Assembly (NCBI GenBank): GCA_000310025.1
Contig: FN649741.1
Coordinates: forward strand, 5,078,247-5,142,246
DNA: 64,000 nucleotides
Source of the DNA: Ectocarpus siliculosus
Lineage: Eukaryota > Sar > Phaeophyceae > Ectocarpales > Ectocarpaceae
Reading direction: 5' to 3'
The position numbers were made by a program, and so were the translations under genes. Numbering within the stretch: the stretch's first letter is position 1; every line of letters starts with the position of its first letter. Below are positions 24,456 to 51,171 of the stretch, one piece after another. The notes under the pieces are model-generated. The model ran no database searches, had not been told where the DNA came from, and saw only the letters and a list, made by a program, of their open reading frames with translations.

Positions 24456-24537
24456 TTCCCCAGAGATTGTCTGCGTATGGCCTGACAAGCAGAGATGGGT
24501 GCCGTCCGACCTGCATTTTATTTTCCGCTGACGCTGG
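24456..24537 (+). repeat. Left unit of an old 82-bp tandem duplication, split by the LTR element
   Basis: ttccccagag at 24456 through gacgctgg at 24537 matches 27728-27808 (ttccccagagg through cacgttgg) with several differences. Removing the LTR element would place the two diverged units directly side by side. Confidence 0.75.
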
Positions 24538-24902
24538 TGTTCGTGAGGTGGATTATGCCATCCTTACGAAGGCTACTGCGGTAGTACTCATGTGTGGTTT
24601 TGAGCTATGCAGGTGCGCAAGTGCGTGACCGTCCATCGGTCATTTGGATCTTCGGGGTATCTCCGGTAGTAGGATCTTTGGCAAGTTGTCGCGCATTCCT
24701 TGCTGTCATGTATTCCGAGTTCCGAATGCGTCTTGCGACTGTTGCTCGCGTGCCTCGGTGTTTGTGATGCACCTGGGTGCCCACTCTCTTCCGTTGCTTG
24801 TGTCTACGAGGACGACCAATAAAACGACTTTACCATCTCTTCACATTGTCAAACGGGACAGCCGTGCTCATCCAGCAGCACTCGGCTTGGGGCCAATCAA
24901 CA
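24538..24902 (+). repeat. Left LTR (365 bp)
   Basis: Starts TGTTCGTGAGG and ends CCAATCAACA. Contains aataaaacgac near 24818, a likely polyadenylation signal. I see no difference from 27358-27722. Confidence 0.9.
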
Positions 24903-24952
24903 CTCTAGAGTTCTTGTGGCGTTAACGTCATAGTCTAGTGCGGCAGACACAC

Positions 24953-27357: not shown

Positions 27358-27722
27358 TGTTCGTGAGGTGGATTATGCCATCCTTACGAAGGCTACTGCG
27401 GTAGTACTCATGTGTGGTTTTGAGCTATGCAGGTGCGCAAGTGCGTGACCGTCCATCGGTCATTTGGATCTTCGGGGTATCTCCGGTAGTAGGATCTTTG
27501 GCAAGTTGTCGCGCATTCCTTGCTGTCATGTATTCCGAGTTCCGAATGCGTCTTGCGACTGTTGCTCGCGTGCCTCGGTGTTTGTGATGCACCTGGGTGC
27601 CCACTCTCTTCCGTTGCTTGTGTCTACGAGGACGACCAATAAAACGACTTTACCATCTCTTCACATTGTCAAACGGGACAGCCGTGCTCATCCAGCAGCA
27701 CTCGGCTTGGGGCCAATCAACA
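27358..27722 (+). repeat. Right LTR (365 bp)
   Basis: The sequence matches 24538-24902 throughout. It is followed by GCTGG, the right copy of the target duplication. Confidence 0.9.
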
Positions 27723-27885: not shown

Positions 27886-28296
27886 CTTCACATCCAAAAC
27901 CGTTCCGATCTCTCTCTACCCAGTACCTTCGTATGTCCGTACTGATCCAACACTCGACGCGGTCGATTCCCGTGGTCACAGGTTAACCTTACCCTAACAA
28001 GGTACGCTCAAATAAACTGGCCCGGAGGGGTCCGCAAGTCAATAGAAATCAACGACAGATATTCTGGAGTCCTCCACTCCCTCTGCGCGCTATGCGAGGT
28101 ATCAACTGAGACTAGGAGTCACTATCATGGGCCGGAGAGAAAGAGGTACACCCCCTTGGTTCAATCGTGGTACTTCACAACGCAAGCAGAGACAAGGCCA
28201 TCTGGCACAGAAAAAGAGAGAAAAAAAGAGAAAAAAAGAGAGAAAAAGAGAAAAAAGAGAAAAAAGATAAAAAAGAAAATAAAAAGGAAACAGTGA
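27728..28296. repeat. Right unit of the 82-bp duplication, GTT microsatellite and purine tract
   Basis: 27728-27808 is the right unit of the diverged tandem pair interrupted by the LTR element. A (GTT)n run spans about 27846-27884. From about 28210 to 28290 the plus strand is almost pure A/G (gagaaaaaaagagaaaaaaa-type), into which the next transposon inserted. No gene is supported. Confidence 0.65.
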
Positions 28297-29498
28297 GGCC
28301 ATTTGTTAAGCTGTCCTTTTTTGGGCTGTCCCTTTTCTCAAAAAGGGACAACTGACCAAGAACCACTTGTTAGGTGGTCTTTTTTTGCATTTTTGAACCT
28401 CCCGAAAAGGGACAGCGAAAAAAGATCGCCCCATCCTGTCCCTTTTTGGGCAACTTTGTGACAGGATGGGACGGTCCTTTTTTGTTGTCCTTTTTCTGTC
28501 ACAACACATGACACTTGCCCACAAACTTGAATATCTCGACGGATGATCCCCGCAAACTCTAACGGTATTCGCACGAGTCGTGTCATGTGACTGGTACGGA
28601 GTCAGTAGCCTCGGCGATAGACGTAATGTTGTCATTCGGCTGACCAGGTGGACAACCCGATGTGTGCGGCAAACAAGCGGCAAACGAGCCGAAAGAGCCT
28701 GGACGCAGCAGCGGTGGGTCTTTTTGGTGCACAGTCAACTTTTGCGAACCCAACTTCTGGGCGACCTATAGCGTCCTGGTCTGTATCAATCACCACACAA
28801 GACGAATCAGACGCACAGCTCATGGCGGATACCTTTGTCATCGCTGTTGCTTCGGTGTGTGACGAGGGAGCATCGATGAACCAAAGTTGCAACACGGGGA
28901 AAAAGAACAAAAAATATGCTTGGAGACGCGGCGGTCATTTTTCCCGCTTGTCCACCACTCTCGCGCTCACAACCTCTGACCGCCCGTCAGCCTCCTGGTC
29001 TGTATCAACCACCACAATAGACGGACCATACACATAGCTCGTGGCGGATACCTTTGTCATCGCTGTTGTTTCAGTGTGTGGCGAGGGAGCATCCATGAAC
29101 CAAAGTGGCGGCATGGGCAAAAAAGAGCAAAAAAAGCTGGTTGTTGGCGCGGTGGTTTTTTTCAAGGTGCTGTTGACTCTCGCCACCTCAGTTGCCGTGC
29201 CTCCCACTGCCCTGTGGTCTCGATCAGCCTCCACACAAGGCGGACCAAGCACCCAGCTCGCGGGGGATAGCCTTACAGTTGCTGATGCTTCACTCTGTGC
29301 GGAGATATCACCGAAAAACCAACTCGGTGCCAAGGTACTCATTGTGTGACGAACGGCCGTTGCACTTGTTGTTGCAGGGTTGCAGGGTCATTTTTTTTGG
29401 CGGATGAGCAAAAAGGATCGACCAGCACCGTAACAAGTGGGTCATCTTTTTGCTAGATTATTTTTTTAGCCCAAAAAAGGACAGCTTAACAAGTGGCC
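28297..29498. mobile_element. 1.2-kb DNA transposon with 31-bp terminal inverted repeats
   Basis: 28297-28327 (GGCCATTTGTTAAGCTGTCC...) and the reverse complement of 29468-29498 (GGCCACTTGTTAAGCTGTCC...) match with one difference. TGA flanks both sides (28294-28296 and 29499-29501), a 3-bp target duplication. Subterminal copies of CCACTTGTTA occur near 28362 and, inverted, near 29430. A GGCC start and 3-bp duplication recall PIF/Harbinger elements, though their usual target is TWA. There is no recognisable transposase, so it is non-autonomous. The centre is made of three 219-bp units. Confidence 0.8.
28690..29348 (+). repeat. Three 219-bp (73-codon) units inside the DNA transposon
   Basis: Equivalent points lie at 28822, 29041 and 29260, exactly 219 bp apart. 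On the plus strand the units read MADTFVIAVASVCDEGASMN, then VADTFVIAVVSVCGEGASMN, then a more diverged AGDSLTVADAS version. One stop (tag, just before 29041) separates the first two. Because the period is a multiple of three, both strands stay partly open, so coding is uncertain. The minus strand reads WFIDAPSSHTEATAMTKVSA over the same units. No domain is recognised. Confidence 0.6.
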
Positions 29499-29724
29499 TG
29501 AGAAAAAGAGAAAATAAAATGAAAATAAAATGAAAGAGAGCGAGGACAGAAATGGACCAGGCCGAAAATAACAAGAAATAAGAGGCAGAAACAGGCACAC
29601 GGTGGAGAGACCACTAACGAACATGCAAACCACCAACCAGCGATACATCGTAATGGTACGTCATCACTACTGGGGGGTTGGTGCAATGGTGCAGCGTTGG
29701 GGGGGGGAATTGGCTAAAAGAAAT
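29499..29724. other. Spacer between DNA transposon and LINE end
   Basis: The purine-rich target sequence (gagaaaataaaatgaaaata) continues past the transposon. The 3' end of the LINE probably lies in this spacer, but I see no clear tail or target duplication. Confidence 0.4.
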
Positions 29725-32700
29725 TCAATCCGGCACGTATCGTGCCACTCGGTCCGTCTCTTCTCGTTTGCTTTCTTCCCTCGCCGTCTCGTCCGTCTCC
29801 TGCCCCCCTCCCGCCCCATTGGTTGTTGGCTTGTGGTTTCGTTTGAGCGCTCGTTGTCGGCTGGCCTCTTCTTCCTTCTCGTGCCAGGAGGTCATGAACC
29901 TCTCAGCTCCCTGCAGCACCGCCGCATGCCAGGGTACTCCCCCCTCCACCTTCGCGGCTTCCGTCCACTTTAACTTCGGTGCCGTGCCTTTCGGTACCGG
30001 GATTCCGAGACAACATGGATCGGTTTTCGTAGATGCGTGGTGGGCCCCGAATGCCTTCAGGTCGTCGAGCACACACTTCGGCCAGTTCTGTTCCTGTCCC
30101 CCCCTACGTGGCTTCTCCCCCCCCGCCAGTTCGCCGAGCATCAGTCGTTTCGGGAGTCGCCCGTCCGGCTGCCTTGCCAGTGCTCCCGCGAACAGTAGGC
30201 GTCATTGTCGGATCGTGGCTTCAACGCTCTGGCATTCGACCCTCTTCAGCGTCTGGGCGTAAGAGAGCTGCCGGTAGGTGTCTTTCTTGCGCTTGTACCC
30301 GATAACTCGAAGGAGCAGTCGGTGGCGTGTCGACCGCAGCGTCTGATAGTGGCCGCTGAGTGGTGACCATGTCATGCAGCCGTACAGCAGTGCCTCCATC
30401 GCCTCCGCCTGGAGGAGGCGGATCTTGAGTCGGAATGGCGCTTTCGGTCTGTCGAAGAGCTCCTGACCATATCGCCTGAGGCAGGCCCACGCTCCTCTGC
30501 TCCTGTAGTTGATCTCCCGGGTGAGGTCGTCATGTTCGTTGACGAGGCCACCGAGGTACCGGAACTCGGTCGTCTGGGCGTATTTATGTCCCGCGGTCTC
30601 GATGGTCAGCGGTGGAGGCGGGGGGGACTGTGATGTTGTAGTCGACTTGTCCTTCGCGCGCATCAGGAGCGTCTCCGTCTTCTTCTCCGACACCGTTAGC
30701 CGAACTCTCCGAACACCTCAACGATGATGGTCAACATTCTCGCCAGTACCTCGATACGACGCCGGCATCATCGGCATACAGCATCCCCCATACTGCCCTC
30801 CGTACTCGGTCAAGGGGTGTCTTCCCCCCCCCCCCCGCTTCCGTCTTCCCCTCCTCCAAGCACACCAGGTTCCGCAGAACAACATCATCCTCGCTGAATC
30901 GGATAACGACGACCTCGAGGTCCTCGGCGAAGAAGATGTTGAACAGCAGTGGGGATAGCACACATCCTTGTCGCACGCCCTGTGTGACGAAGAACCAGTC
31001 CGATAGTTCTCCGTCGTCCATGCGCACCTAGGCCCGCATTCCATCGTGGAATTGGCGGATGACTTTGAGTAGCTTCGCGGGAATCCCGGCCCTGGCCAGC
31101 ACCTTCCATAGCATCTCTCGGTCCACCGAATCATACGCCTTCTTCAAGTCGACGAAGCACATGTAGAGCGGTATTTTCTTTCTCCGCCCCAGCTCCTGGA
31201 GGCGGCGCACGACGAACAGCATGTCGACGGTGGATCGCCCGGGTCGAAATCCGCACTGTTCCTCCGGGAGGATGTTGTTGGCTTCGCAGAAGGCGCTTAG
31301 ACGGTTGGTGATGATCTTGATGGGGACATTGCCTACGTGAGATAGTAGCGAAGTCCCCCTGTAGTGGTTACAGTTGGACCGGTCACCCTTCTTGTACAGC
31401 ACCCTGATGGTTGCATCGTTCCACTCTCGCGGGATATCTCCTCCGTTCCACACCTTGACGAGGATGGTATGGAGGTGTCCCAGGACAAAGGGTTCGTCGT
31501 CATCGATCTTGAGCAACTCGGCAGGGAGGGAGTAATGGCCGGGTGCCTTCCAGTTCTTGAGGCATTTCGCTGCCCGTGCCACCTCCTCGAGTTCTGGCAC
31601 CTCTCCCAACCGTTGAGTGTCACGTGTCGCTGGCCGCTGCGTCACTCGTTCGATGATGTCTGGGTTCAGGGTGGAGGATTTGGTGTTGAGTAGGGTGCTG
31701 AAGAATCTCGCCCACCGTTGGAGGATGTCGTCCCTGTTCCGGAGCAACACGCCGTTCTCATCCGCGATGAACTGCTGTCCCCCCGCTTGTCTCCCATTGA
31801 GGCCCACTGATCTCTTGAGGTGTTGATACAGTCCTCTCATGTCGCGATCTTTGTAGATTGCTTCGAGTTCAGTCACATATCCGTCCAGGTGGGCATAAAT
31901 GCCCGTTTCGACTGCTGTAGCCACTTCCTTACACGCTGCTTTGAGAATTCTCCACATTGCTGAGTTCCAGTTGCCCCTCATCGCCCGGCGCACTTCCCGC
32001 CGTTTGGTAAGGGCCTTCTCCAGCGCTGCTCTCGTCTCTGGGGTCTCACACCACTCCTGCGTGCGGCGTCTCCGCGGTTCCTCCCCTAGGGTCGTCCGCG
32101 CTGCTTCGAGGAGAGCATTGGTAAAGTCGGTCGCCAAGTCCGCGGCGGTGCTTGTTCGCTCGTCCAGTCGTGTGTCGAGGTTGAGGAGGAACCGATTAGT
32201 CACCGCACACCGTGCTGCTTCGAACTGCATTTCCCGTCGGTTGAATTGCTGCTGTTTCGGTTTAGTCCGGACTGCACGGTTGTGGGCAAGCCTGCCACCG
32301 AGGTTGACGGTGGCTACTACCATATTGTGGTCTGAGTCTGCTTTGACTGGGCGAACTGGCTGGGGGATGACAACCACGTTAGATACTCGGCCGTGATGTG
32401 CCTGCCTTGTCAGGATGTAGTCAAGGCGCTTGCAATCGTTTCCCGACACACCGTTGTATGTGTGCCATATTCCGCCCTTGCGTGTCTCGAAAAACGTGTT
32501 CGTGAGAGCTGTAGCCTGTTTTCCGTTGCGAAATTCAACAGTAGCATACCATTGTCGTTGAGCTCATCACGCCCGTACATTCCTATTACCCTGCCGTCCC
32601 CTCCGTCCAACCTATCTCCCGTCCGCGCGTTGGCGTCCAATAGGACATACACACATTCTTTGGAATGGATCCTCCGCACGAGACTGTCAAGTTTTCCCCA

Positions 32701-36361: not shown

Positions 36362-39300
36362 TCTAGTTCCAACTCGGCGACTTGTGGTTGTTGTGTTTGT
36401 TGTTACTGAGCCCACTTCGGATACCGCCGTTCGGTACAGATTTATGTCTGACAGCCTGCGGTGGGCCAAAGGGACGAGAGTGAGTGAGTGTCTTCTCGAG
36501 AGTGAATGCGTTGTCTTCTCTCCGCTCTCTTCTTTCAGTCTACCTGTCTCTCTCTCGCCTTTCGCCGGTGGGGTCCCAACAACATCAAACTACGTCAAGC
36601 GCAGTGGTTTTGCATTTTGCTGAGTAAGAGGCTACCCGTGCACCGGCTGCTGCATGAGAGGCAATGTGCGCTACCTGTTTTTTGTCAAGCAATGGACTTG
36701 GGGCCCTACCTAATGCTGGACATGCAGTACTATGTGACATGTTCCAGCGGCCCAGAGCGAGCGACGACCACGGTGGGTTTTCTATGCTTCTTTTGCCTCC
36801 TCCCTCAAGCCTGTCGCGCCTGGCTCACTTGTCTTTGATATTATTTTTTCATTTTTCATGCTTTGTTTGTTGGGGTCCCCCAGCGACCCGCCCACCATTA
36901 TTTTTTGTTGGGAGGGGTGTTTACTTGCCATGTTCATGACTGCGCCCCTGACATTTTACTCGCACCCCGTCCATTCCACTTGTCAACACACCACCATATC
37001 CTATTGTACCATGCCCACCGACACGTCCAAGGCTTGGGGAATTTTGAAGCTTTAGCTTCAGTCTCATCGTTCAGTATCCGATCCGTGGAAGTTTCATTCG
37101 CATGCCCCACCCCTGCCCGACCCGGTTTAAAATGCTGATCTCGAGCTACAGCGCAAATCTCGTGGCGCCTCGAGTATGGTTCGGTGTGGAATCGCAAGTC
37201 ATGAGCCGTCCCCGAGTTTGAGCGGCTTCCGCTTCCTGTGGCCGGCAAGAGTCGCCGTTGGCTGTTCCTTGCCTGTTTCGCCATGGGAACGGCCGATTGA
37301 ACAGCGCAAAAGGGTCCTGCGTGCTGCGCGCCACGTTTTTTTTTTTTTGCGTTTGTTCTTGAGTGACCATTGTACACATGCGGCTGCTGCTGCGGTTTCT
37401 GCTGTTATTGTCGGAATGTGCTGCAATGGTCGTACGGTTATCGTAGTCAGGTTTGACAACAGTCTGCTCGTTCGTATAGCGGTAGCGTTGCGCATCTATC
37501 GCGACGGCAAGCGCATTGAGATAATAGTTCGTCCGTGGTGCTTCTAGTCTACACAGAAAGATAGTCGTGTTCTTCGTTGTTGCCACTTCATACCAGAAAA
37601 GAAAGAAAGTCTCCACCAACTTAGAGTATCTCCACAGCAGTTCGGAAATGACGACTATTTTTCTTTTGTCGTGTTTGTTGTTGCTGAGCGCACATCGGAT
37701 GTCGCCGTTCGTTACACGTGTTCAAGCCAGCGGTGGACACAGGGATGAGAGTGAGTGTCTTCTCGACGAGAGTTCATGCCTTCTCTTCTCGAGTCTCCCT
37801 TCCTTTAGTCTACCTCTCTCTCTCTGTTGCATTTTCGCCGTTAGGGTCCCCAATAACATCGAACGTCAACGGCAATCGTTTTGCGTCTTGCTGAATTGGA
37901 GGCTACCCGTGTACCCGGCTGCTGCATGTGAGGCCATGGGCGCCGCCTCTTTCCGTCAAGCAATGCGCATGGCCCCTACGGTTCGCCGCACATGCAGTGC
38001 TGTGTGACAGCTTCCAGCGGTTCAGAGCGTCGACGGTGTTTTTCGCCGGTAGAGCCCCAGAACAACGCGAACCCTGCGATTGTTTCATTGTTTTGGGGTC
38101 CCCCACTCACCCACCCATCCATGACTTTCAGCAATTAGGTTTCGTTGGGGGGATGTTTTTCTTGGCATGTCCATGACGTCTTGCCCCGAGCGAGTATGGT
38201 TCGGTAGGGACTCGCAAACCATGACCCCTCCCCGAGTTTGAGCATCAGCTTTGGCCTCCTGTGACGGACAAGGAGACGGAAATTGTCTCGCCATCCAAAC
38301 AACAGTCGGCCAGTTGAAAACAAGAGGGTCCGGTCCACCGAAGTTTTTTTTTTTATGTTTCCCTGCCGACAAATAACCTCGGCTACGGCAGTGCAAATCT
38401 CATGGCGCCTCAAGTACGGTTCCGTAAAGAATTGCAAAACACGACCCCTCCCCGACTTTGAGTATAGTTTCCACCTCCTGCGGCGGATAAGACCGACGTC
38501 AAACCCTAGGTTTTGTCTGTCTGTGTCTGTGTCGCCATGTCGTCGCCATCCACGAACAGCAGTTGGAGAGTCACAACAAAGAGGGTCCGCTTCGCCACCA
38601 AGAAAACATTTTTTTTTTTCGATTCTTCTATTATAGCTGGATATGATGCTACCATGTATCGGGTATATAGCTGTGGTTGAGCTTGAGGGATATAGGGTCT
38701 ACTGCAGCATATTCTATGCGAAGAGTTAACGCCTTCCTCGCGTAACGATGCGCATCTCCCATGGCGAGCAGAATGGATGACGTCATCATGACGCTATTTC
38801 TTGTGACTACAAGTTCAAGTTCGCCCGGGCGTTATTGTTCTTGCCGGAGAAAGAGACTAAACTTCTGCTACGTACCAGTCCGTGCATGTATCCGGCTACT
38901 GCATGTGAGGTTGTGGGTGCTGCCCCTGCTGTTTTCTACGGTACATGGAAAGCGTCCAGTGGGTCAGAGCGGCAAGGGGTCTTGTTTCTTCACTTGTTTC
39001 TTTGGCTCTGCTCTCCTCTACTCCTTCTTTGTTTCCTGTCGCTGGCGGTCTCTCTTTTGTTATCGCCCTTCGTTCTTGCTTGCAAGAAACTGTGAGGATG
39101 TAAAATGGCTGAGTCTGACTGTTTCTTAGGGTCCCCCGCCCACCCACGACCCACCTGTCGGCATGATTCATTTGTGGTCTCCAATAATTTCAGCAGTAGT
39201 GGTCTATTACAGGACATACATGCGCTACTACTGCTGCGTCCATGGGTGGGTGCAACAGAAGAGCTCCGGGGACTGGTGGTCTTCTGACCTGATCGCAGAG

Positions 39301-40541
39301 AGAGGTTCCTGCCACTACCACAATACGACTCTTATGAAATGTCCATGACGGGGAACGCGTCCTACGCCTCTTCTCTTTTCTTTTTTCCCTCTCTCCCGTC
39401 CGGTTCTTTCGTTTCGGAGAGGAAACCTACTGTGAAAAACGCATCCTCAGGGGTCCGCATTCATTTAGTCCCGGATTCTTTCCCAGCGTGCGGAAGAGCG
39501 CGTTCTGAGTGTGGCCTCCTTTTCATTCGGGTGTGACGTGCGCACTACATGTATGTATGTAAACGAAAAAAAACAGATCAACGAGATGATTCTTGAAAGT
39601 ATGGAGTCCCTCGCCACAAAAAAGTGCGTGCGCATGGATGGGCGTAGTGAGATATGCCGGTCGAAGACTGACGGTTTTTTCGGGTGCGCGTGAGGTCGCC
39701 TCTAACATTCGTTTGCTCATTTTTTGCTTCATTGTCCCGTCTATAGTTACTACCTCGCATAGCGTATTGAAGCGAGCGGAGGGTCCTAGACTAATCTGTC
39801 GTCGACTTGCGGACCCTTTTTCGGGTCCATCATATTCTATAACTTTTTTGCGTAAGTTAGCCTATGACCACGGCGGGAATCGACCGCGTCAAGTTAAGTG
39901 TCAGACTATCATACAGAATATTAGTACCAACAGACGAAGGTACAAGAAGGTACTGGGTAGGGAGAACAGAACGAACACGATTTTTTGTAATTAATTGTGA
40001 AGACATCAACAACAACGGTACTGCTGGGTTCGTCCATGGATAGTTTTTGCAGCACTTTTTGTTTTTTTACTATTTGTGTATAAAACGACTTCTTCATGGA
40101 TGGGTAATGAGAGGTTTCAATTCAACTACTACAGTAACTTACCTACTACTTGGAGTATGGATGTTAGTCGTTGTTCTTATGCATGGCATGTACCGGCAGA
40201 AGTAGGTGACACAATATATCGCATCATCATCAATATTCACAGCTAGTAATGTTAGTCCACGGCGACGAGGATATCATACGATAGGATTGTGTCGGAAAGC
40301 TATCGGTGCCAACGCCGCCCGGCCACGATATTATATCAGCTGTGGAGTAATCGAGCCTTGAAAATTTAAAATTGTTCAGGGGGTGTGATATCTGATGTCA
40401 TCTACTCTGTGTATAGAACTCTTTGTCGTGCTCGGTGGGCGAGCGTGTCGCGGTGTGCGCCCTCGACTTTATTAACGGCTAAAAAACTGGAAAGCTTCAA
40501 ACAGGCAACGCGACGATACTCGTCGAGTTGCTATCACAATG
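36362..40541 (+). repeat. Long direct repeat, copy 1 (4.2 kb)
   Basis: The segment from tagttccaactcggcgactt near 36364 to gttgctatcacaatg at 40541 reappears at 46792-51171 in the same order and orientation, with high similarity along almost its whole length. Inside it are degenerate tandem units that start near 37047, 38187 and 38391. Each carries gagtatggttcggt or a variant, ccctccccgagtttgag, gtNtcgccat and then a poly-T run. Each later has a block like ggctgctgcatgtgaggc and a ggggtcccccacNcaccca block. The last 1.4 kb (39165-40541) is single-copy within the repeat. One small conserved frame is listed separately. Confidence 0.85.
39553..39693 (+). CDS. 46-codon ORF kept open in both long-repeat copies (copy 1)
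   Basis: Starts MYVNEKKQINEMILESMESL and ends GFFGCA. The copy at 50159-50299 has the same length. Of five base differences I count three as synonymous and two as replacements (V/M and S/A). It has three cysteines and no membrane segment. Coding is possible but the frame is short. Confidence 0.35.
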   Translation: MYVNEKKQINEMILESMESLATKKCVRMDGRSEICRSKTDGFFGCA

Positions 40542-41186: not shown

Positions 41187-41870
41187 TCATCGCCTCGGGG
41201 AAATCAGTTTCATATTGAATTGATGGCCCCATCTCTTTCGACATGAGATCACAGTAAAGATAATGCATCTGGACTTGATGCTTGGGTCAAAGTCAGGAGA
41301 GCACACTTCTTCGAGCTTGGCTTTCAAGGCGAGCTCGCGTTCCGCCCGGGGCACTTCCACCTCGTCGAAATCCACTTGATACTTGCCGTTCGGGCTGTAC
41401 CTAATCCAGTAGATGGGGAGCTCGTAACCCGCCTGGATCAAGGCTGCTCGGACATCCGACATCCTGCTGAACTCGCACGATAAATTGTACCAGAAGTGTT
41501 GTTCCTCGTCCACCTCCAAGAGGACAATAGCCTTTGTGGCGTTGATGATGTGATAGTCCAACCGCGAGTAGGCACGCTCGGTATCTGGGAGACACTCTTT
41601 TCTGGAGGCGTTGATGGTCACCTCGGGGTCAAAATCGTACCCGCACGGTCAACATCTTGGTGACTCTTTTCTCTTGCTTCTTGTGACGAATCTGGCCTTT
41701 GACTTAATGTGTCTCCTCGTGGCGGGTGAGATGCGAGGAACTACTGAAACTCATGTCACACCCCGGGAAGTCACATGCGTGATCTTTTTGTCCCGTATGG
41801 ATCATTTTGTGTAGGTTTGTTGAGTTGGTACTCCTATAGTCGCAGTTTGGATCGTGTGGCCAATGCGTCC
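41187..41870 (-). pseudogene. C2H2 zinc finger plus PD-(D/E)XK-like nuclease domain, broken
   Basis: On the minus strand a frame contains zinc-finger parts (CDYRSTNSTNLHKMIHTG, CDFPGCDMSFSSSSHLTRHE) and stops in TAA at 41704. The following piece, 41621-41187, reads LDYHIINATKAIVLLEVDEE and QHFWYNLSCEFSRMSDVRAA, then YELPIYWIRYSPNGKYQV. The spacing of an Asp (RLDYHI), an E-x-D (LLEVDEEQH) and the downstream CEFSR helix suggests a restriction-endonuclease-like fold. This zinc-finger-plus-nuclease layout is, to my memory, seen in algal and large-virus proteins. Stops separate the two parts, so it is not functional as read. The N-terminal side runs directly into the PP2A fragment, leaving a chimeric junction near 41870. 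Confidence 0.5.
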
Positions 41871-42025
41871 GTCCCCGTCCAAATCTTAGACTGTAATCAT
41901 TCCCTCGGTCTTCCTCGCTGAGCATGAAGCATACATAGTCTTCGTATGTCATCGTCGCTCGGGGATCCGACCCATCTTCATTTCGTCGCCCTTGGGGAAA
42001 GGGTCGCGGTCCCACTGACATTATC
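41871..42025 (-). pseudogene. PP2A B'' regulatory subunit, second exon of a gene fragment
   Basis: After an acceptor (gatctcgcccag) the minus strand reads RIMSVGPRPFPQGRR, then MTYEDYVCFMLSEEDR. This matches the family block that follows the EF-hand (typically MGYEDFVYFILSEEDK). It joins in phase with the exon at 44792-44674. Just past SLRF the expected WFR-containing helix is missing, and LDGDGRIG appears in another frame before the sequence turns into the zinc-finger piece. PP2A B'' proteins bind calcium and direct the phosphatase. This fragment cannot. Confidence 0.6.
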
Positions 42026-42369
42026 CTGGGCGAGATCAATCATGTACCAGCCGTGGAAAAACTTCTCGGTTAGAACTTAGGCCGTACCCGAGGCCCATCG
42101 GCGGCAACGCTTTCGACGCCAATGCTGTACCCGCACCCAGTAAACGCGACATCCGATCCGTAGATTCGCAACCGTTTATTGGTTTTACGTCAAACTTAGC
42201 CAATCCCGTCAAACGATTAAACCATATAGATGTCAATTTGAACGCGAATTGAAACTATCCAATATACTTCCTCACAAAGAGATCCGCATACTGTTGACTG
42301 GGATAAGTTCCTTGCTTCCGTAAGACCCAAACTTTTAAGGGGCAATAACGAGACCCCATGAGAGACCTG

Positions 42370-43624
42370 TTAGGTGGTCTTTCGCTTTCTCCCGGAAGTC
42401 CTTGTTGCTTCCTGGTGTGTTTCAGAAGCACACCGAAGGAGAATGTTCGATGCTCCACTAATATCTCTACCCATACACAAGTTACACCTGGAACACTTGT
42501 ACACTTCAGCGTCACCAACATCCTTTTTGAGTACACCACACTTGACACATGTTTGTGTCGTGTAAGACTCATCCTGGATCACTACCGCGTGAGGAGTTAT
42601 ACTGGTCTTCATGAGAAGTCTCTGTCGAAACAAAAAATGACTCAGGAACCTGAAATGATCCTTGTTTGTTTTGTTCTGACTCTTCATGGACATGAGCTGT
42701 TGGACGTTGATCTTTCCGAGGATGATCACGTCGTAGTTGTCCATTAGAAACTTGATGGTCTTGAAATGGAAGTCCGTCACAAGATCCTTGGCTCTCGCGT
42801 TAACGCGGTAACAGGCTCTTCCGAGGTTGTTCTTCTTCTTGTCGTCTTTGGAGTCCTTGATGGCTTTCAAGATCCCATACGACTTGGTCCTGAGTTTTTC
42901 CATGGTTCCTTTTGTTTTGATACCGATTTCATCGATTCTCCCGTGGTTCGAAACACGAGTAAACGCCTTCCGTAGTCCAGGGTCGATACCCACGATTCTT
43001 GGTTCTTCTTCCGATTTCTTGGAGTCTTGCTCTGGTTCTTGAGCTTCAACGGTTTCAGGGATGATAAAGTACCACCTCCCAAAACAATATCCGATCTTAC
43101 GGGAATGTTCAGGTTGTGTCTCTGACTCACAGAGATCCTCGGATACTTTCAGGTTCATCCCGAACAGGACCAGGTTCTTCTTGTCCATACGAATACTCTT
43201 GGAGTCCAACTCAAAGGAGTCTCCTGGACTTGTGCTTGACCTCGAATCGTTTGTTGGTTTTGAACCTGTTCCTGGTTACATTCTGGTCCTTTCGCCGCTT
43301 CCTCTTGTTCTTCAGCTTTCCGTTCTTGACCTTCCTCAGTCTCTCCCTGTAAGCGGCTTTCGCACTGTTAAAGTTTTTGAAAAGGGCTCTTACCGCAGAA
43401 ACCCAGATGTGGGCGGGTGATGTCTTGATTCGTTCGAACTTGGTCCCTTCATCCGAGTCCCTTCTGGTCACAACGAGTTTCTTGAGGACCATGCTAACCT
43501 TGGCTTTCTTGTCCTTCACCAGTCTCAGGGCTTCGTTGTAGGTCTTCCTGTGTGTTGACATCCAGAATCGAAGAGATTTCGATTGTTCGGGAGTCGTTTT
43601 GATCCGTACTATCCTGGATCTCAT
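42370..43624 (-). pseudogene. Fanzor (eukaryotic TnpB-like) RNA-guided nuclease, one frame change
   Basis: An ATG at 43624 starts RIVRIKTTPEQSKSLRFWMS, typical of the TnpB N-terminal wedge, with a basic stretch (KNKRKRRKDQNVTRNRFKTN). The frame changes near 43210. The second part carries RuvC-I (VGIDPGLRKAFT), the RuvC-II region (VIILGKINVQQL, without the usual Glu), DESYTTQTCVKCG...YKCSRCNLC zinc-ribbon motifs and RuvC-III (GRDISGASNILLR). Lack of Glu in RuvC-II with an acidic residue just before the zinc ribbon (DES) is the rearranged active site described for Fanzors. At about 418 codons it is TnpB-sized, as in Fanzor2. The family cuts DNA guided by an RNA read from the element's end. Confidence 0.85.
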
Positions 43625-44208
43625 GGGGACCTTCGGTTCCTTGGACTTTTTGCTTTTTGTATCTCCTTGACCCGTGGAGTTTGCAGGAGAAGACGTGAAT
43701 GATGGCCACTAGATCTTCTGTGAGCTCTTGTTCTGTGGAACGTAGGACATGCTCTTGGACCACTAGATTTGTGTCTCCTCGCTTGCATACCCACCCGAGG
43801 AGATCAATGGCGAACCGGTAGAGTCTGTATCTTTATGCCCGATAACAACTTCTTCGACGTTTCCTAGCAGTATGGAGTCAACCATTCGCAGAAATCCTCG
43901 TCGCTTAAAGTTGATTCCTGACCCGATGTCCTTGATGATTTCGTGGTCCGGGTGGCTTTCTTTGAACGACTCTTCTTGGCGTCTGAGGGGTTCCTTTTGC
44001 TTGGAAGAGCTGACTCGACAGTAAGCAATCTTTCTTCTCTGGCTGTGCCCTTTTGCTTCTTTGGTTTTGGACCTGACGTTGAGGACTAACGAAAGTGTCC
44101 TCCGGCCGTTTCGATGCTTCTGATGGTCCCGTTACTTCTCCATCGTTTTGCCGATTAATTGGAGATTCCGTATTCTTTTCGGAGGGTGGCTCCGGACACA
44201 TAAGGCAT
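43494..44208 (-). pseudogene. IS607 TnpA-like serine recombinase with MerR-type helix-turn-helix, interrupted
   Basis: An ATG at 44208 begins MPYVSGATLRKEYGIS, a MerR-type DNA-binding start. After a stop in that frame the pattern continues as SAKRWRSNGTIRSIETAGG. The catalytic domain follows in a second frame: IAYCRVSSSKQKEPLRRQEE (serine in RVSS), EIIKDIGSGINFKRRGF, GNVEEVVIGHKD. It ends in a third frame: RLYRFAIDLLGWVCKRGDTN, ELTEDLVAIIHVFSCKLHGS. These are the hallmark blocks of IS607 recombinases, which move the element through a circular intermediate. One stop and two frame changes are visible, so this copy is inactive. Its end overlaps the Fanzor start, as usual in the family. Confidence 0.85.
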
Positions 44209-44673
44209 GCCGATCTCAATTACGCTTGAAAAACATGTTTTATTTCTTAGTTCAAACGCGGAAGATATGTCACAACTTGGACTCCAATAAATCAGTTTAT
44301 GAACACTTGAATCTATTCTGGGTTACTAGTCACTGTTGATCTATCGACATTCCGCGCATGCGCTCAACACGTGTGCCTGAAACAGAAAAGCTACTTACAC
44401 GGCTTATTTGAGATGCCCAATTTAAACTAACCCTCGGGTTTGGAGATGCACATCCCCACGCAAGCACATACGATCGTCTCGAAGCAAATATGTCACAGGG
44501 GAATTCCACCCGAAACGAACCATAAGTCCGCAGTGTTCAGATTGACAGAAGCAAGCAAGCGCGTTTAGTAGACCTGAAACAGCGCAGCGGAGGGCGACTT
44601 CACCGTTGTTCGATCGCTGTCGTGGACAAGCCAAACACATGCCAGATATTTCCGCAGTGATGTTCCCATTTAC

Positions 44674-44792
44674 CTGTCCACGATGAGGCGGCTCAAGCCA
44701 TGCTCGTCGTACTTGATGAGATCCTCTCCGTTCAACCGGCCATCTCGGTCAGCATCAAGCTCATAGAAGCGGCAGAACACGACGTAGAAGTG
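44674..44792 (-). pseudogene. PP2A B'' regulatory subunit, EF-hand exon of a gene fragment
   Basis: The minus strand reads HFYVVFCRFYELDADRDGRL and GEDLIKYDEHGLSRLIVDR, then a gtaaat donor at 44673. This is the EF-hand block of PP2A B'' subunits (family form HFYVIYCKFWELDTDHD). Phase fits the exon starting at 42025. On the other side no AG acceptor precedes it and a stop lies three codons upstream. The sequence before HFY is gttttaacgttttaac, which could be an AT-AC type acceptor or simply decay. No other exon of this gene of about 10 or more expected exons is found nearby, so this is a gene fragment. Confidence 0.7.
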
Positions 44793-44871
44793 GTTAAAAC
44801 GTTAAAACAGACAGACCCCAGCAAAAAGTCTTAATATTAAATTTGGCAGCTGCCTGCTTGTTTGTTGAGAG

Positions 44872-45090: not shown

Positions 45091-45313
45091 GTCGGACGTT
45101 AAACATTCCACCACATCAAGGACCTGATAGGCGCTGCTATACCACCTATAGCGAAGCCATATCAGTCATACTGCTCGCGACAAAACGTCGTCGGGACCTG
45201 GGGGACTAGCGGGAGTTACTGTTGGCTTGTGCCGCCTGCCGGAGGGACCTACCAGATTCTCGTTCAGCAGGCACAGCCGTTGGCGTCACCGTTCCGGGGT
45301 CCGGACGCTAAGT

Positions 45314-46654
45314 ATGGAGTTCCTTCTTCCATCCGCTCAATCGGAGGCCGGTTGCGGGTTGGTTGCAGAGGTCGACGGGGAGAGTTTTTCGGACACACTG
45401 TCCAGAGCCTCGAGGATCCTGTCAAACCGATTCGGCCCTTCACATGATATTCTAACGCGGTCTTTGTGTGTCGCCGTGTCCCGTCACTATATCGGAGGAG
45501 CCCGGACGCCGTCACTGGGCCAATATCTGGCAGCTTCAGACACCGACGGAGGATTGGCAATCGCCAGGCTGGTTTATGCAGCAGCGAAGTCTAAGGACTA
45601 TTCGGATTGCTGTGATTTCGCGGACTTGTTCGACGGGACCCAAGCCCCGAACTACGCCCTCCGTAATCGAGTCTCACCGGACCAAGGCGTCCGGTGGCTA
45701 CTTTGTTGGGCCGAGATGGAAGGGTCGTACAATTTGGTGTCGAGTGAGGATGATGGGGCCCGCGTGGTGCAACAGTACAAAGACATGTTGCCGGTATGCC
45801 CCCCGGGGGAGCCTAGTGTGATACTCATCGAAGGCACCCCGCAACCCCGGTATTCGCTGGATGCGAAGGGCTTCGTCTACTTCAAATCGAAACTCGCTCA
45901 CAAGTTAGCCAGGCTCAAGGTCGCGCAACAAGAAATGCAACGCTACAGCATCCTTCTCCCGGGAAGACTGTCACTGATGCAAATGATCGGGATATCAGGC
46001 ACCAACTTGATACAACAGTACGGGGACATCAATGCGGTATTCGACCTTGACACGAGCCCCCTCTCCTCGTCGGGTATAAAGGTGGGGAGGTCCGGTGAGC
46101 TATATGCCCGGAGTTACCTCCGCTGGGGGGGGGCTCTGGCAGGGTCTGTAGCGGTTATACTCGGTTATGTTCTGGCCTTCCTGTTCCTAGACCGTTCCGC
46201 TTACGGTGTGCTGGCGGCGTCCGCGCTAGCTTTGAGCTCGGGAGTGTTTGGGTCGCTAGCAGTTGGGAATGACTTCGGCACCCTGTTAGTGTCGGGGTTC
46301 GTAAACGTGGGCAGTGGAATTCCATTCGTGGGACGTGACTCTAGGGAAGTAGCGGTGGAGTGCTACAGGGCAAACGTCAACCCTTACAAGGAAAGCGATT
46401 GCTGGGCATCGGAAAAGCAGGGGGGTTGCATAGCACACGAAGGCTACAGGAGGGCTGACGCGCAGCAAGGTCGAGCCCATGGGAATCTATGGGTCACACC
46501 CGGTGGCGAAGTGCGGGAGATGGTGCGTACCACCGTGCAAGGCACTGTTCACGCCGTCAAGAGAGATGGGACCGAGGTCGTGAGTTATGTCGGTATGATT
46601 TGGGACTGCGTGTCCCTGTCAGGCCCGGAACGAGTATCGCAGCCCGGAAACTAA
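45314..46654 (+). CDS. Unknown intronless protein of 446 aa with a double hydrophobic segment
   Basis: The first ATG is at 45314 (the open frame extends upstream to about 45227 without an ATG). The N-terminal two thirds are soluble (TDGGLAIARLVYAAAKSKDY, VRWLLCWAEMEGSYNLVSSE). Around residues 270-320 there are two hydrophobic stretches (GGALAGSVAVILGYVLAFLF, GVLAASALALSSGVFGSLAV). The C-terminus is Cys-containing and soluble (RANVNPYKESDCWASEKQGG). No introns, unlike host genes. It fills the right part of the core between the long repeats. I do not recognise the family: it could be a mobile-element, virus-derived or lineage-specific gene. Short inverted words aggtcgtgg/ccacgacct flank its 3' region at about 46654 and 46782. 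Confidence 0.6.
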   Translation: MEFLLPSAQSEAGCGLVAEVDGESFSDTLSRASRILSNRFGPSHDILTRSLCVAVSRHYIGGARTPSLGQYLAASDTDGGLAIARLVYAAAKSKDYSDCCDFADLFDGTQAPNYALRNRVSPDQGVRWLLCWAEMEGSYNLVSSEDDGARVVQQYKDMLPVCPPGEPSVILIEGTPQPRYSLDAKGFVYFKSKLAHKLARLKVAQQEMQRYSILLPGRLSLMQMIGISGTNLIQQYGDINAVFDLDTSPLSSSGIKVGRSGELYARSYLRWGGALAGSVAVILGYVLAFLFLDRSAYGVLAASALALSSGVFGSLAVGNDFGTLLVSGFVNVGSGIPFVGRDSREVAVECYRANVNPYKESDCWASEKQGGCIAHEGYRRADAQQGRAHGNLWVTPGGEVREMVRTTVQGTVHAVKRDGTEVVSYVGMIWDCVSLSGPERVSQPGN

Positions 46655-46791: not shown

Positions 46792-49700
46792 ATCTGGTTC
46801 CAACTCGGCGACTTGTGGTTGTTGTGTTTGTTGTTGCTAAGCCCACTTCGTAAACCGCCGTTCGGTACAGATATCTGACAGGCTTGCGGTGGGCCAAAGG
46901 GACGAGAGTGAGTGAGTGTCTTCTCGAGAGTGAATGTCTTGTCTTCTCTCCGCTCTCTTCTTTTAGTCTACCTCTACCTGTCTCTCTCTCGCCTTTCGCT
47001 GGTGGGGTCTTAACAATATCGAACTTCGTCAACCGCAGTGGTTCCGCATCTTGCTAAGTAAGAGACTACCCGTGCACCGGGTTGCTGCATGAGAGGCGAT
47101 GTGCGCTACCTGTTTTATGTCAAGCAATGGACATGGGGCCCTACCTAATAATGCTGGACATGCAGTGCTATGTGACATGTTCCAGCGGCCCAGAGCGAGC
47201 GACGACCACGGTGGGTTTTCTATGCTTCTTTTGCCTCCTCCCTCAAGCCTGTCGCGCCTGGCTCACTTGTCATTGATATTTTTTTTTCATTTTTCATGCT
47301 TTGTTTGTTGGGGTCCCCCAGCGACCCGCCCACCATTATTTTTTGTTGGGAGGGGTGCTTACTTGCCATGTTCATGACTGGGCCCTGGACGTTTTACTCG
47401 CACCCCGTCCATTCCACTTGTCAACACACCACCACATCCTATTGTACCATGCCCACCGACACGTCCAAGGCTTGGGGAATTTTGAAGCTTTAGCTTCAGT
47501 CTCATCGTTCAATATCCGATCCGTGGAAGTTTCATTCGCATGCCCCACCCCTGCCCGACCCGGTTTAAAATGCTGATCTCGAGCTACAGCGCAAATCTCG
47601 TGGCGCCTCGAGTATGGTTCGGTGTGGAATCGCAAGTCATGAGCCGTCCCCGAGTTTGAGCGGCTTCCGCCTCCTGTGGCCGGCAAGAGTCGCCGTTGGC
47701 TGTTCCTTGCCTGTTTCGCCATGGAAACGGCCGGTTGAACAGCGCAAAAGGATCCTGCGTGCTGCGCGCCACATTCGTTTTTTTTTTGCGTTTGTTCTTG
47801 AGTGACCATTGTACACATGCGGCTGGTGCTGCGGTTTCTGCTGTTATGGTCGGAATGTGCTGCAATGGTCGTACGGTTATCGTAGTCAGGTTTGACAATA
47901 GTCTGCTCGTTCGTATAGCGGTAGCGGTGCGCATCTATCGCGACGGCAAGCAAGCGCATTGAGATACTAGTTCGTCCGTGGTGCTTCTAGTCTACACAGA
48001 AAGATAGTCGTGTTATTCTTTGTTGCCACTTCATACCAGAAAAGAACGGAGGTCTCCACCAACTTACAGCATCTCCTACAGCAGTTAGTTCGGAAACGAC
48101 GACTAGACTATTTTTCTTTTGTCGTGTTTGTTGTTGCTGAGCGCACATCGGGTGTCGCCGTTCGTTACACGTTTTCAAGCCTGCGGTGGGCCAGAGGGAT
48201 GAGAGTGGGTGTCTTCTCGACGAGAGTTCATGCCTTCTCTTCTCGAGTCTCCCTTCCTTTAGTCTACCTCTCTCTCTCTCTCTGTTGCATTTTGGCCGTT
48301 AGGCTCCCAATAACGTCGAACGTCAACGGCAATCGTTTTGCATCTTGCTGAGTTGGAGGCTACCCGTGTACCCGGTTGCTGCATGTGAGGCGATGGGCGC
48401 CGCCTCTTTCCGTCAAGCAATGCGCACGGCCCCCACAGTTCGCCGCACATGCAGTGCTGCGTGACAGCTTCTAGCGGTTCAGAGCGTCGACGGTGTTTTT
48501 CGCCGGTAGAGCAGCCGAACAACGCGAACCGCGACTGTTTCATTGTTTTGGGGTCCCCCACTCACCCACCCATCCATGAATTTCAGCAGTTAGGTTTCGT
48601 TGGGGGCATGTTTTTCTTGTCATGTGCGTGACGTATTGCCCCGAGCGAGTATGGTTCGGTAGGGACTCGCAAACCATGACCCCTCCCCGAGTTTGAGCAT
48701 CAGCGTCGGCCTCCTGTGACGGATAAGAAGACCGGAAATTGTCTCGCCATCCAAACAACAGTTGGCCAGTTGAAAAAAAGAGGGTCCGGTCCGCCGAAGA
48801 TTTTGTTTTTATGTTTCCCTGCCGACCAATAACCTCGGCTACGGCAGTGCAAACCTCATGGCGCCTCAAGTACGGTTCCGTAGGGACTTGCAAATCACGA
48901 CCCCTCCCCGACTTTGAGTGTAGCTTCCACCTCCAGCCGCGGATAAGACCGACGTCAAACCCTAGATTTGGTCTGTCTGTGTCGCCATGTCGTCGCCATC
49001 CACGAACAGCAGTTGGAGAGTCACAATAAAGAGGGTCCGCTTCGCCACCAAGAAAACAGTATAAATCATCAGTGTATAGACTTTAAAAGACTCGAAATAA
49101 GTCCAGTACCCAGCCGGTTTCCCTTCACTCACTGAAAAGACTCCACCACATCCCGTTCGACTGTGGGTATATCTCGAATGGGTAGTCTTTCTGTGTGTGT
49201 TTTCATTATTCCTTAGGTTTTTTTTGAATTCTTCTACAGCTAGATATGATGCAACCATGTATTATCGGGTATAGCTGTGGTTGAGGTTGAGGGATATAGG
49301 GTCTACGGCAGCATATTCTATGCGAAGAGTTAGCGCCTTCCTCGCGTAACGATGCGCATCTCCCATGGCAAGCAGAATGAAGTACGTCATCATGACGCTG
49401 TTTCTTGTGACTGCAAGTTCAAGTTCGCCCGGCCGTTATTGTTCTTGCCGGAGAGAGAGACTAAACTTCTACTACGAACCAGTCCGTGCATGTATCCGGC
49501 TACTGCATGTGAGGTAGTGGGTGCTGCCCCTGCTGTTTGCTGCGGTATATGGAAAGCTTGCAGTGGGTCAGAGCGGCAAGGGGGTCTTGTTTCTTCACTT
49601 GTTTCTTGGCTCTGGTCTCCTCTACTTCTTCTTTGTTTCCTGTCGCTGGCGGTCTCTCTTTTGTTATCGCCCTTCGTTCTTCCTTGCAAGAAACTGTGAG

Positions 49701-51171
49701 GATGTAAAATGGTCTGATTGTTTGTTAGGGTCCCCCGCCCACCCATGACCCACCTGTCGGTATGATTCATTTGTGGTCTCCAATAATTTCAGCAGTAGTG
49801 GTCTATTACAGGACATACATGCGCTACTACTGCTGCGTCCATGGGTGGGTCCAACAGAAGAGCTCCCGGGACTGGTGGTCTTCTGACCTGGTCGCAGAGA
49901 GAGGTTCATGCCACTACCACAATACGACTCTTCTTATGAAATGCCCATGACGGGGAACGCGTCCTACGCACGTCTCTTCTCTCTTCTTTTTTCCCTCTCT
50001 CCCGTCCGGTTCTTTCGTTTCGGAGAGGAAACCTACTGCGAAAAGCGTATCCTCAGGGGTCCGCATTCATTTAGTCCCGGATTCTTTCCCAGCGCGCGGA
50101 AGAGCGCGTTCTGGGTGTGGTCTCCTTTTCATTCGGGTGTGACGTGCGCACTACATGTATGTATGTAAACGAAAAAAAACAAATCAACGAGATGATTCTT
50201 GAAAGCATGGAGTCCCTCGCCACGAAAAAGTGCATGCGCATGGATGGGCGTAGTGAGATATGCCGGGCGAAGACTGACGGTTTTTTCGGGTGCGCGTGAG
50301 GTCGCCTCTAACATTCGTTTGCTCATTTTTTGCTTCATTGTCCAGTCTTCTATAGTTACTACCTCGCATAGCGTATTGAAGCGAGCGGAAGGTCTGTCGT
50401 TGACTTGCGGACCTTTCTTCGGGTCCATTTTATTTTCGTATAACTTTTTGGATAAGTTAGCCTGTGACCACGGCGGGAATCGACCTCGTCAAGTGTCAGA
50501 CTATCATGTATGATAGTACGAACACACGACGAAGGTACAACAAGAAGGTACTGGGTAGAGAGAACAGAACGAATGGTTTTTTGTAATTAATTGTGAAGAC
50601 AACAGCAACGGCACTGCTGGGTTCGTCCGGTTTTTTGTAATTAATTGTGAAGACAACAGCAACGGCACTGCTGGGTTCGTCCATGGATAGTTTTTGCAGC
50701 ACTTTTTTGTTAAGTATTGGTGTATAAAACGACTTCTTCATGGATGGGTAATGAGACGTTTCAATTCAACTAACTTACTTACTGGAGTTGGAGGGTGCTC
50801 GTTGTTATTATGCACGGCATGTACCGGCAGTAGTAGGTGACACAATATATCGCACCATCAATATTCACAGCTAATAATGTTAGTCCACGACGACGAGGAT
50901 GTCAAACGATAGGTTTGTTTCGGAAAGCTATCGGTGCCAACGCTGCCCGGCCACGATTTCTGCTGTGGAGTAATCGTCGAGCTTTGAAAATTAAAAATTG
51001 TTAAGGGGCTGTGATATCTTATGTCATCTACTCTGTGTATAGAACTCTTTGTCGTGGTTGGTGGGCGAGCGTGTCGCGGTGTGCGCCCTCGACTTTATTA
51101 ACGGCTATAAAAAAACTGGAAAGCTTCAAACAGGCAACGCGACGATACTCGTCGAGTTGCTATCACAATGT
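46792..51171 (+). repeat. Long direct repeat, copy 2 (4.4 kb)
   Basis: Counterpart of 36362-40541, ending at the same gttgctatcacaatg. Copy 2 is longer mainly through an insertion of about 165 bp at about 49060-49225 and a 54-bp tandem duplication at 50574-50681 (ttgtaattaattgtgaagac twice). By eye the copies differ at a few per cent of positions, so the duplication is not brand new. No long coding frame is shared apart from the 46-codon ORF. Confidence 0.85.
50159..50299 (+). CDS. 46-codon ORF kept open in both long-repeat copies (copy 2)
   Basis: Same start and length as 39553-39693. It differs at two residues (M for V, A for S) and three synonymous sites. Its role is unknown. Confidence 0.35.
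   Translation: MYVNEKKQINEMILESMESLATKKCMRMDGRSEICRAKTDGFFGCA

What the first reader, a model, noticed from the sequence alone, without database searches (positions are those of the whole stretch)
42255..44210. IS607-type transposon pairing a serine recombinase with a Fanzor nuclease in a eukaryotic intron
Both partners of the bacterial IS607 layout are visible on the minus strand: a MerR-HTH serine recombinase (RVSSSKQKEPLRRQEE, KDIGSGINFKRRGF) overlapping a TnpB-sized Fanzor (IDPGLRKAFT, CVKCG...CSRC, RDISGASNIL). It lies between matching splice sites of a host-type gene fragment, showing how such an element can persist without disturbing coding sequence.
Basis: partly seen in the sequence, partly recalled or inferred. 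Interest (0 to 1): 0.9.

Follow-up and report, generated by a model that had tools for sequence, protein, structure and literature searches.

The report
Broken IS607-Fanzor2 transposon in an intron
A eukaryotic genome carries a worn-out copy of a bacterial-type jumping gene that once paired a DNA-rejoining enzyme with an RNA-guided nuclease, lying inside an intron of a broken gene fragment; such pairs are a known kind, but relatives suggest that the two genes are written almost entirely on top of each other.

Summary
On the minus strand an IS607-type serine recombinase (TnpA) is followed by a TnpB-sized nuclease of the Fanzor2 lineage. It keeps DPG in RuvC-I, the moved glutamate, four zinc cysteines and RD; the closest solved structure is mimivirus Fanzor2 L79, its sister in my tree. 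The pair lies in a 2648-bp GT-AG intron whose two exons splice in frame into part of a PP2A B'' subunit.

The copy is broken: tnpA needs three frames and has an in-frame stop in its HTH; the nuclease needs two frames. The host gene is itself only a two-exon fragment, so it cannot show how a working gene tolerates the element. Eukaryotic IS607-Fanzor2 elements are in print, so this is a decayed new member of a known kind. Ends, empty site and guide RNA were not resolved.

A broader point came from the relatives: in the pro-Fanzor lineage the nuclease frame is open through most of tnpA (72 stops against 290 expected in 59 elements), with slowed silent change in tnpA. The window keeps the matching +7 start but cannot test the rest. 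In the passages I saw, nobody describes this.

The parts
44674..44798 (-). host exon, PP2A regulatory subunit B'' (EF-hand part)
   Evidence: joined with 41881-42025 matches 4mew, E 4.8e-14; tblastn 43% identity
42026..44673 (-). intron GTAAAT...CCCAG, 2648 bp, holding the element
   Evidence: junction restores the PP2A B'' frame at D-R-I
41881..42025 (-). host exon, PP2A B'' continued (MTYEDYVCFMLSEEDR); the match ends at 41881
44089..44208 (-). TnpA N-terminal HTH piece, ATG at 44208; in-frame TAA at 44157; TAG at 44088 just after it
   Evidence: TnpA profile 9-49, E 1.2e-4
43826..44053 (-). TnpA catalytic piece (YCRVSSSKQK, DIGSGINFKRRGF, GHKD), second frame
   Evidence: profile 57-132, E 5.3e-27
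43605..43838 (-). TnpA C-terminal piece (RLYRFAIDLLGW...IIHVFSCKLHGSRRYKK), third frame; the break falls in the conserved HKDRL motif
   Evidence: profile 128-205, E 2.5e-20
43211..43624 (-). Fanzor2 N-terminal piece from MRSRIVRIKTTPEQ, with HTH_OrfB_IS605
   Evidence: (TnpB profile 97-275 over 43834-43229, E 2.8e-18)
42370..43275 (-). Fanzor2 C-terminal piece after a frameshift near 43215: RuvC-I D 42984-42982, moved RuvC-II E 42570-42568, zinc ribbon, RuvC-III D 42465-42463
   Evidence: (profile 271-511 over 43152-42412, E 2e-45)
44199..44201 (-). ATG in the +1 frame, 7 nt after the TnpA ATG, where the overlapping nuclease frame starts in some relatives
42026..42369 (-). non-coding stretch after the nuclease in which the right end and guide RNA should lie; no end or structure identified

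Best explanation
It is a dead copy of an IS607-type transposon of the Fanzor2 lineage that inserted, in the sense orientation, into the intron of a PP2A B''-like gene copy in a eukaryote, and has since decayed. While alive, TnpA (serine recombinase) would have cut and rejoined double-stranded DNA at short dinucleotide sites, leaving no inverted repeats and no target duplication. The nuclease, guided by an RNA from the element's right end, would have cut the emptied donor site or empty alleles, so that repair restores the element (inferred from what is published on TnpB and Fanzor; not tested here). Shown: family identity, order, strand, intron position, the broken frames, and the catalytic residues still readable. 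Inferred: how it moved, its guide RNA, and arrival by horizontal transfer. Relatives keep the nuclease frame open through most of the transposase gene; the window retains a matching start 7 nt after the TnpA start.
For: Domain and profile matches for the pieces, none in the reversed window at E below 0.05. Active-site columns: D-P-G, moved E, last D and four Cys are all present; the canonical RuvC-II column is G in the window and in mimivirus L79, P in 83 of 83 other relatives, E in both canonical rows. Tree of 51 rows: window and L79 together, 99/85. Predicted fold of the C-terminal piece (mean pLDDT 79.2) matches mimivirus Fanzor2 9b0l best, Foldseek E 4.2e-12. TnpA piece on the same strand at the front of the nuclease frame in 17 of 17 viral relatives; a TnpA hit somewhere in the locus in 84 of 98. 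Spliced host exons. The TnpA frame changes fall at adjoining profile positions, leaving no room for introns.
Against: The transposon ends and a recombination dinucleotide were not found, so 'inserted as one unit' is inference. No guide RNA structure: fold z-scores -1.04, 0.87 and -0.22 in the three stretches after the nuclease, no Rfam match. The window's long branch makes its exact place unsure, and L79 is the only Fanzor2 reference. In the 87-row tree a canonical row joined the same branch. The nuclease has one frameshift only and could have been intact until recently; a tiny intron at 43152-43229 is not strictly excluded (profile positions 271-275 recur across 77 nt).
Confidence: 0.85

Rival explanations
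1. The element is intact and the breaks are sequencing or assembly errors.
For: The three frame changes are indels, a common error type. The catalytic residues are kept.
Against: The TAA inside the HTH is a separate, substitution-like change; three indels plus a stop in about 1.8 kb, next to a host fragment that is also truncated.
Confidence: 0.13
2. A living element read by recoding: TAA/TAG read as an amino acid, and programmed frameshifts.
For: The HTH frame continues past TAA with fitting residues (GISN*SAKRW).
Against: Recoding of stops does not repair three frameshifts. In 17 of 17 viral relatives the nuclease is one frame; in 14 of 17 TnpA is one frame of 172 aa or more (L015, L016 and L017 are broken or partial).
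Confidence: 0.02
3. The element arrived inside a larger endogenous giant-virus insert rather than by hopping into a host intron.
For: Closest kin are mimivirus L79 and L003, a 62.9-kb viral contig with a neighbour weakly like poxvirus NPH-I. Endogenous giant viruses of the brown alga Ectocarpus carry an IS4-family transposon with a Fanzor gene (PMC13236599, passages).
Against: It is bracketed by two exons of one host-type gene in the right order, strand and phase. A scan with the neighbouring frame 41187-41648, which reaches close relatives only, found no viral relative.
Confidence: 0.12
4. A bacterial contaminant or chimeric assembly.
For: IS607 elements are common in bacteria (all 5 genomes searched have one).
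Against: It is flanked by spliced exons of PP2A B'', which I know only from eukaryotes (recalled), with an RT-coding frame nearby; the nuclease groups with mimivirus L79, apart from the cyanobacterial rows.
Confidence: 0.02

Closest known systems
Mimivirus Fanzor2 L79 (PDB 9b0l)
   Same: Same nuclease lineage: DPG, moved E, G in the canonical E column, C4 zinc ribbon; best sequence and fold match.
   Different: 28-31% identical over the fragment compared; a protein of a virus, with a solved structure, whereas the window copy is broken and in a eukaryotic intron.
Fanzor2 IS607-type elements of eukaryotes (ACa-1, ACa-2 of Acanthamoeba; Bao and Jurka 2013, PMC3627910)
   Same: Fanzor2 with a TnpA_IS607-like serine recombinase, no inverted repeats or target duplication reported (passages).
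   Different: The window copy is decayed; sequences of those elements were not available here to compare.
Cyanobacterial pro-Fanzor IS607 elements (Yoon et al. 2023, PMC10711439, passages)
   Same: DPG and moved E; IS607 TnpA upstream; nuclease frame overlapping tnpA.
   Different: P, not G, in the canonical E column (83 of 83 rows, viral ones included); prokaryotic or virus-borne; many unbroken.
Canonical IS607 (L099 Microcystis phage LMM01, L101 Acidianus tailed spindle virus)
   Same: TnpA then TnpB on one strand with a short overlap.
   Different: Canonical E; annotated tnpB starts 23 nt before the tnpA end, and the +1 frame of tnpA holds the stops expected by chance.

Membership tests
IS607 family | TnpA: N-terminal MerR-type HTH followed by a serine-recombinase domain | tested here: met
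   present but in three frames, HTH weak, NCBIfam score under cut-off
IS607 family | tnpB-type nuclease gene downstream, same strand | tested here: met
IS607 family | No terminal inverted repeat; GG-type dinucleotide at both ends; no target duplication | tested here: inconclusive
   Only short inverted matches in the intron; ends not located
Fanzor2 | DPG in RuvC-I and a glutamate just before the zinc ribbon | tested here: met
Fanzor2 | Closer to eukaryotic/viral Fanzor2 than to prokaryotic TnpB | tested here: met
   99/85 with L79; only one Fanzor2 reference row, long branches
Fanzor2 | RNA-guided DNA cleavage | not testable with these tools
   no bench work possible
Fanzor2 | Guide RNA at the right end | tested here: inconclusive
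   nothing above chance
Active IS607-Fanzor2 transposon | Continuous reading frames for both proteins | tested here: not met
Intron insertion in a working host gene | Complete host gene around the intron | tested here: not met
   two pieces only in 64 kb (query recalled)

The most novel reading that the evidence does not exclude
The element belongs to a lineage in which the RNA-guided nuclease and the transposase are encoded in almost completely overlapping frames: the nuclease frame commonly has its first ATG 7-76 nt after the transposase ATG, and an N-terminal extension of 103-216 residues (median 198 in 28 rows) is largely overprinted on tnpA. That would tie the two genes together, so that tnpA can hardly change or be lost without damaging the nuclease, and the eukaryotic Fanzor2 elements would descend from such a nested pair. 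The window keeps the +7 start.
Probability: 0.5. Interest if true: 0.65.

Novelty: new member of a known kind. Interest (0 to 1): 0.42.

Why it matters
A readable fossil of a two-gene bacterial-type transposon inside a eukaryotic intron adds a case to the route from bacterial TnpB to eukaryotic Fanzor, and its kinship points to giant viruses. The by-product may matter more: in the ancestral lineage the nuclease frame seems to run under selection through the transposase gene. If translated, it would change where these nucleases are taken to begin, give a reason why the pair travels together, and suggest testing longer forms of pro-Fanzor proteins at the bench.

Tried and rejected
Close-relative scans of viral contigs with the nuclease, the TnpA piece, the neighbouring frame 41187-41648 and a 41-nt exact pattern found no relative; only the alignment query worked. 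Guide RNA by folding and by Rfam: nothing. Terminal repeats in the intron: only short matches. Recoding of stops: rejected, since it leaves the frameshifts. Other copies or an empty site in the same genome: not possible. Overlap test on the window's own three TnpA pieces: +1-frame stops 0, 1 and 2 against 0.4, 1.7 and 1.9 expected, uninformative. The 87-row tree (15 of 98 loci dropped beforehand as near-duplicates by my judgement) pulled a canonical row onto the window's branch, so it was rebuilt with 51 rows, both outgroup rows and every second genome locus dropped. A first control with pattern-based classes ('proF' 8 stops against 72.4, n 13; 'other' 21 against 39.7, n 5; 14 of 32 loci without a pair) was muddled: of the five 'other', one search put L118 and L119 with the pro-Fanzors and found no intact tnpA in L116. 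It was replaced by the profile-based.

Full report
What is there. On the minus strand, 44208 down to 42370, lie the pieces of two proteins. TnpA profile positions 9-49 match 44211-44089, positions 57-132 match 44053-43826, and positions 128-205 match 43838-43605, each in a different frame; the nuclease profile matches 43834-43229 in one frame and 43152-42412 in another (profiles from 56 TnpA and 92 TnpB rows without the window; no hit in the reversed window at E below 0.05). Pfam, NCBIfam and PDB searches agree: Resolvase, transpos_IS607, 3lhf and 3ilx for the recombinase; HTH_OrfB_IS605, Cas12f1-like_TNB, guided_TnpB and 9b0l for the nuclease. The NCBIfam scores are below the whole-protein cut-offs (67 against 110, 84 against 100), and OrfB_IS605 is below its Pfam cut-off (25.5 against 30.5), as fragments may be.

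State. An in-frame TAA stands at 44157 in the HTH; a frame change follows between 44088 and 44053; a second falls inside the conserved HKDRL motif near 43830; the nuclease changes frame near 43215. The gaps in TnpA are too short for introns; at the nuclease break 77 nt are available, so a tiny intron is unlikely but not excluded. The copy is best read as dead. Broken TnpA is not rare: a study of other IS607 loci% of TnpAs pseudo-proteins (PMC11061315, passages).

Nuclease lineage. In an 87-row alignment the window keeps the RuvC-I D with P-G, the moved glutamate, the last D and all four cysteines; in the column of the canonical glutamate it has G, as does mimivirus L79, whereas 83 of 83 other relatives have P and the two canonical TnpB rows E. 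Among those 83, DPG is kept in 81 and the moved E in 81. In the 87-row tree a long canonical row joined the branch of window and L79 (97/86); in a 51-row tree without the two outgroup rows the window and L79 are sisters with 99/85, and L003 comes next. All three branches are long and L79 is the only Fanzor2 reference, so this supports Fanzor2 but is not a fine placement. The predicted fold of the C-terminal piece (mean pLDDT 79.2, 23 rows) has mimivirus Fanzor2 as its best Foldseek match, E 4.2e-12; the Spizellomyces and Parasitella Fanzors (Fanzor1, recalled) rank 42 and lower.

Host context. The exon 44798-44674 and the exon 42025-41881, joined at GTAAAT and CCCAG, read through without a stop and match PP2A B'' (4mew, E 4.8e-14), the junction falling at D-R-I. 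A tblastn with a recalled human sequence found only these two pieces in the 64 kb (E 1.4e-9 and 0.049; the other 13 listed rows have E 0.57 or more; capped at 15). The frame of the second exon runs on into a zinc-finger-like stretch, and by eye no clear acceptor precedes the first exon. So the element sits in an intron, but of a gene fragment. Two direct repeats (36362-40541 and 46793-51170, 88-93% identical) flank the whole stretch. The organism is unknown; a eukaryote follows from the intron and the PP2A gene.

Relatives. An alignment query found 17 viral contigs, 17 of 17 with a TnpA piece on the same strand overlapping the front of the nuclease frame; in L015, L016 and L017 TnpA is broken or partial. 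One scan of bacterial and archaeal genomes kept 79 loci (the best 80 of 310 relatives), 71 of them cyanobacterial by title; over all 98 loci 84 had a TnpA hit somewhere in the locus (its motif patterns are not anchored and were replaced by the alignment). L003 has a neighbour weakly like poxvirus NPH-I (E 1.9e-6), so it may be a giant virus (inference).

Overlapping frames. In many relatives the nuclease frame is open, stop to stop, from near the tnpA start. Test 1: synonymous codon shuffles of tnpA in the 59 elements of 98 loci that passed the filters (TnpA frame of 180 aa or more, same strand, neighbouring; near-identical copies included): +1-frame stops 72 observed, 290 expected, none at all in 10 of 59; +2 frame 753 against 791. 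The nuclease lies in the +1 frame in 58 of 59. Controls: canonical IS607 L099 19 against 18.3, L101 27 against 28.0. Second set, 30 loci from 5 genomes plus L099-L101 (33 loci, 6 without an intact tnpA): pro-Fanzor 33 against 104.7 (n 17, of which L123 and L131, the latter doubtful, hold 25 stops), canonical 63 against 70.3 (n 4, L099 and L101 among them; L102 has 2 against 6.0), no TnpB found 55 against 55.2 (n 6; two of them, L103 and L114, below expectation). Test 2, in 58 elements: fourfold sites changed in 270 of 1431 (0.19) in tnpA against 810 of 2271 (0.36) in the downstream nuclease gene, lower in 18 of 18 pairs that share no locus, picked greedily from 76 pairs; first positions of tnpA, which are third positions of the overlapping frame, changed more than in the nuclease gene in 12, equally in 3 and less in 3 pairs (rounded values). 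The first nuclease-frame ATG lies 7 or 10 nt after the tnpA ATG in one group and about 67-76 nt after it in another, with exceptions such as L010 (238) and L013 (TTG at 217, ATG at 241); in some loci the first-ATG rule picked a wrong tnpA start, so I give no count. From the start codons that I chose, the extension before the core is 103-216 residues, median 198, in 28 rows. It is mostly disordered in the prediction for L026 (residues 1-63 under 50), with short blocks at 56-78. The nuclease profile, whose front end is this extension, also hits the window's overlapping frame inside tnpA at 44052-43813 (E 2.9e-9), but conserved tnpA bases alone could give that. Evidence against: no proof of translation; slower silent change could have other causes; L79 aligns to the extension of L003 only weakly and from its residue 48 on. 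In the window the three pieces have 0, 1 and 2 stops against 0.4, 1.7 and 1.9 expected, so it neither supports nor refutes; the +7 ATG is present.

Known state. Bao and Jurka 2013 report TnpA_IS607-like recombinases in Fanzor2 elements including two of Acanthamoeba (PMC3627910, passages). Yoon et al. 2023 describe DPG, the moved E, and cyanobacterial pro-Fanzors (PMC10711439, passages). That IS607 ORFs often overlap is stated in eLife 2018 (PMC6188088, passages), and 'overlapping or separating' in PMC9956272 (passages). A nearly whole-length overlap under selection was not mentioned in the passages seen; 'overlap' has no occurrence in the held main text of Yoon et al. or of Bao and Jurka. My searches for it were made; apart from the papers just named and PMC11061315 I saw only their listings. 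Supplements were not read, and most subscription papers are not held.

Verdict. Real, correctly named in outline, decayed, and of a known kind. The claim about harmless persistence in a host gene is not supported here. The most interesting lead is the overprinted nuclease extension in its relatives.

Noticed in passing
L001-L098 (for example L021 1965-3696, L003 3112-4798): The nuclease frame of pro-Fanzor IS607 elements runs open through most of tnpA (+1 frame), with stops depleted about fourfold in 59 elements and fourfold-degenerate sites of tnpA slowed in 18 of 18 pairs.
   Followed up: yes
36362-40541 and 46793-51170: Two direct repeats of about 4.2-4.4 kb, 88-93% identical, flank the element's region; by eye no TG..CA ends or target duplication. 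Very long terminal repeats or a segmental duplication.
   Followed up: partly
41187-42039 (-): A zinc-finger-like frame (41704-42039, C2H2 just under the Pfam cut-off) followed by a 153-aa frame (DYHIINATKAIVLLEVDEEQHFWYNLSCEFSRM) without a convincing Pfam match, abutting the truncated PP2A fragment; no close viral relative found.
   Followed up: partly
24536-27722: LTR retrotransposon with two identical 367-bp LTRs and a frame 24926-25984 with a weak copia-type gag match (E 0.055); apparently recent.
   Followed up: no
31028-32563 (-): Frame with a reverse transcriptase match (PF00078, E 2.3e-13) and a weak endonuclease match, probably a LINE.
   Followed up: no
28296-29499: 32-nt inverted arms, 97% complementary, 1.14 kb apart, around a 219-bp tandem array: perhaps a non-autonomous DNA transposon.
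   Followed up: no
59742-62809 (-): Overlapping frames matching a sulfotransferase (Sulfotransfer_3) and a family 2 glycosyltransferase.
   Followed up: no
45152-46654 (+): 500-aa open frame without a Pfam match, just upstream of the PP2A fragment.
   Followed up: no
L001 2160-3867: Microcoleus phage My-WqHQDG carries a pro-Fanzor annotated as hypothetical protein from the long overlapping start (about 562 aa); a tnpA frame overlaps it and is not listed as a feature.
   Followed up: partly
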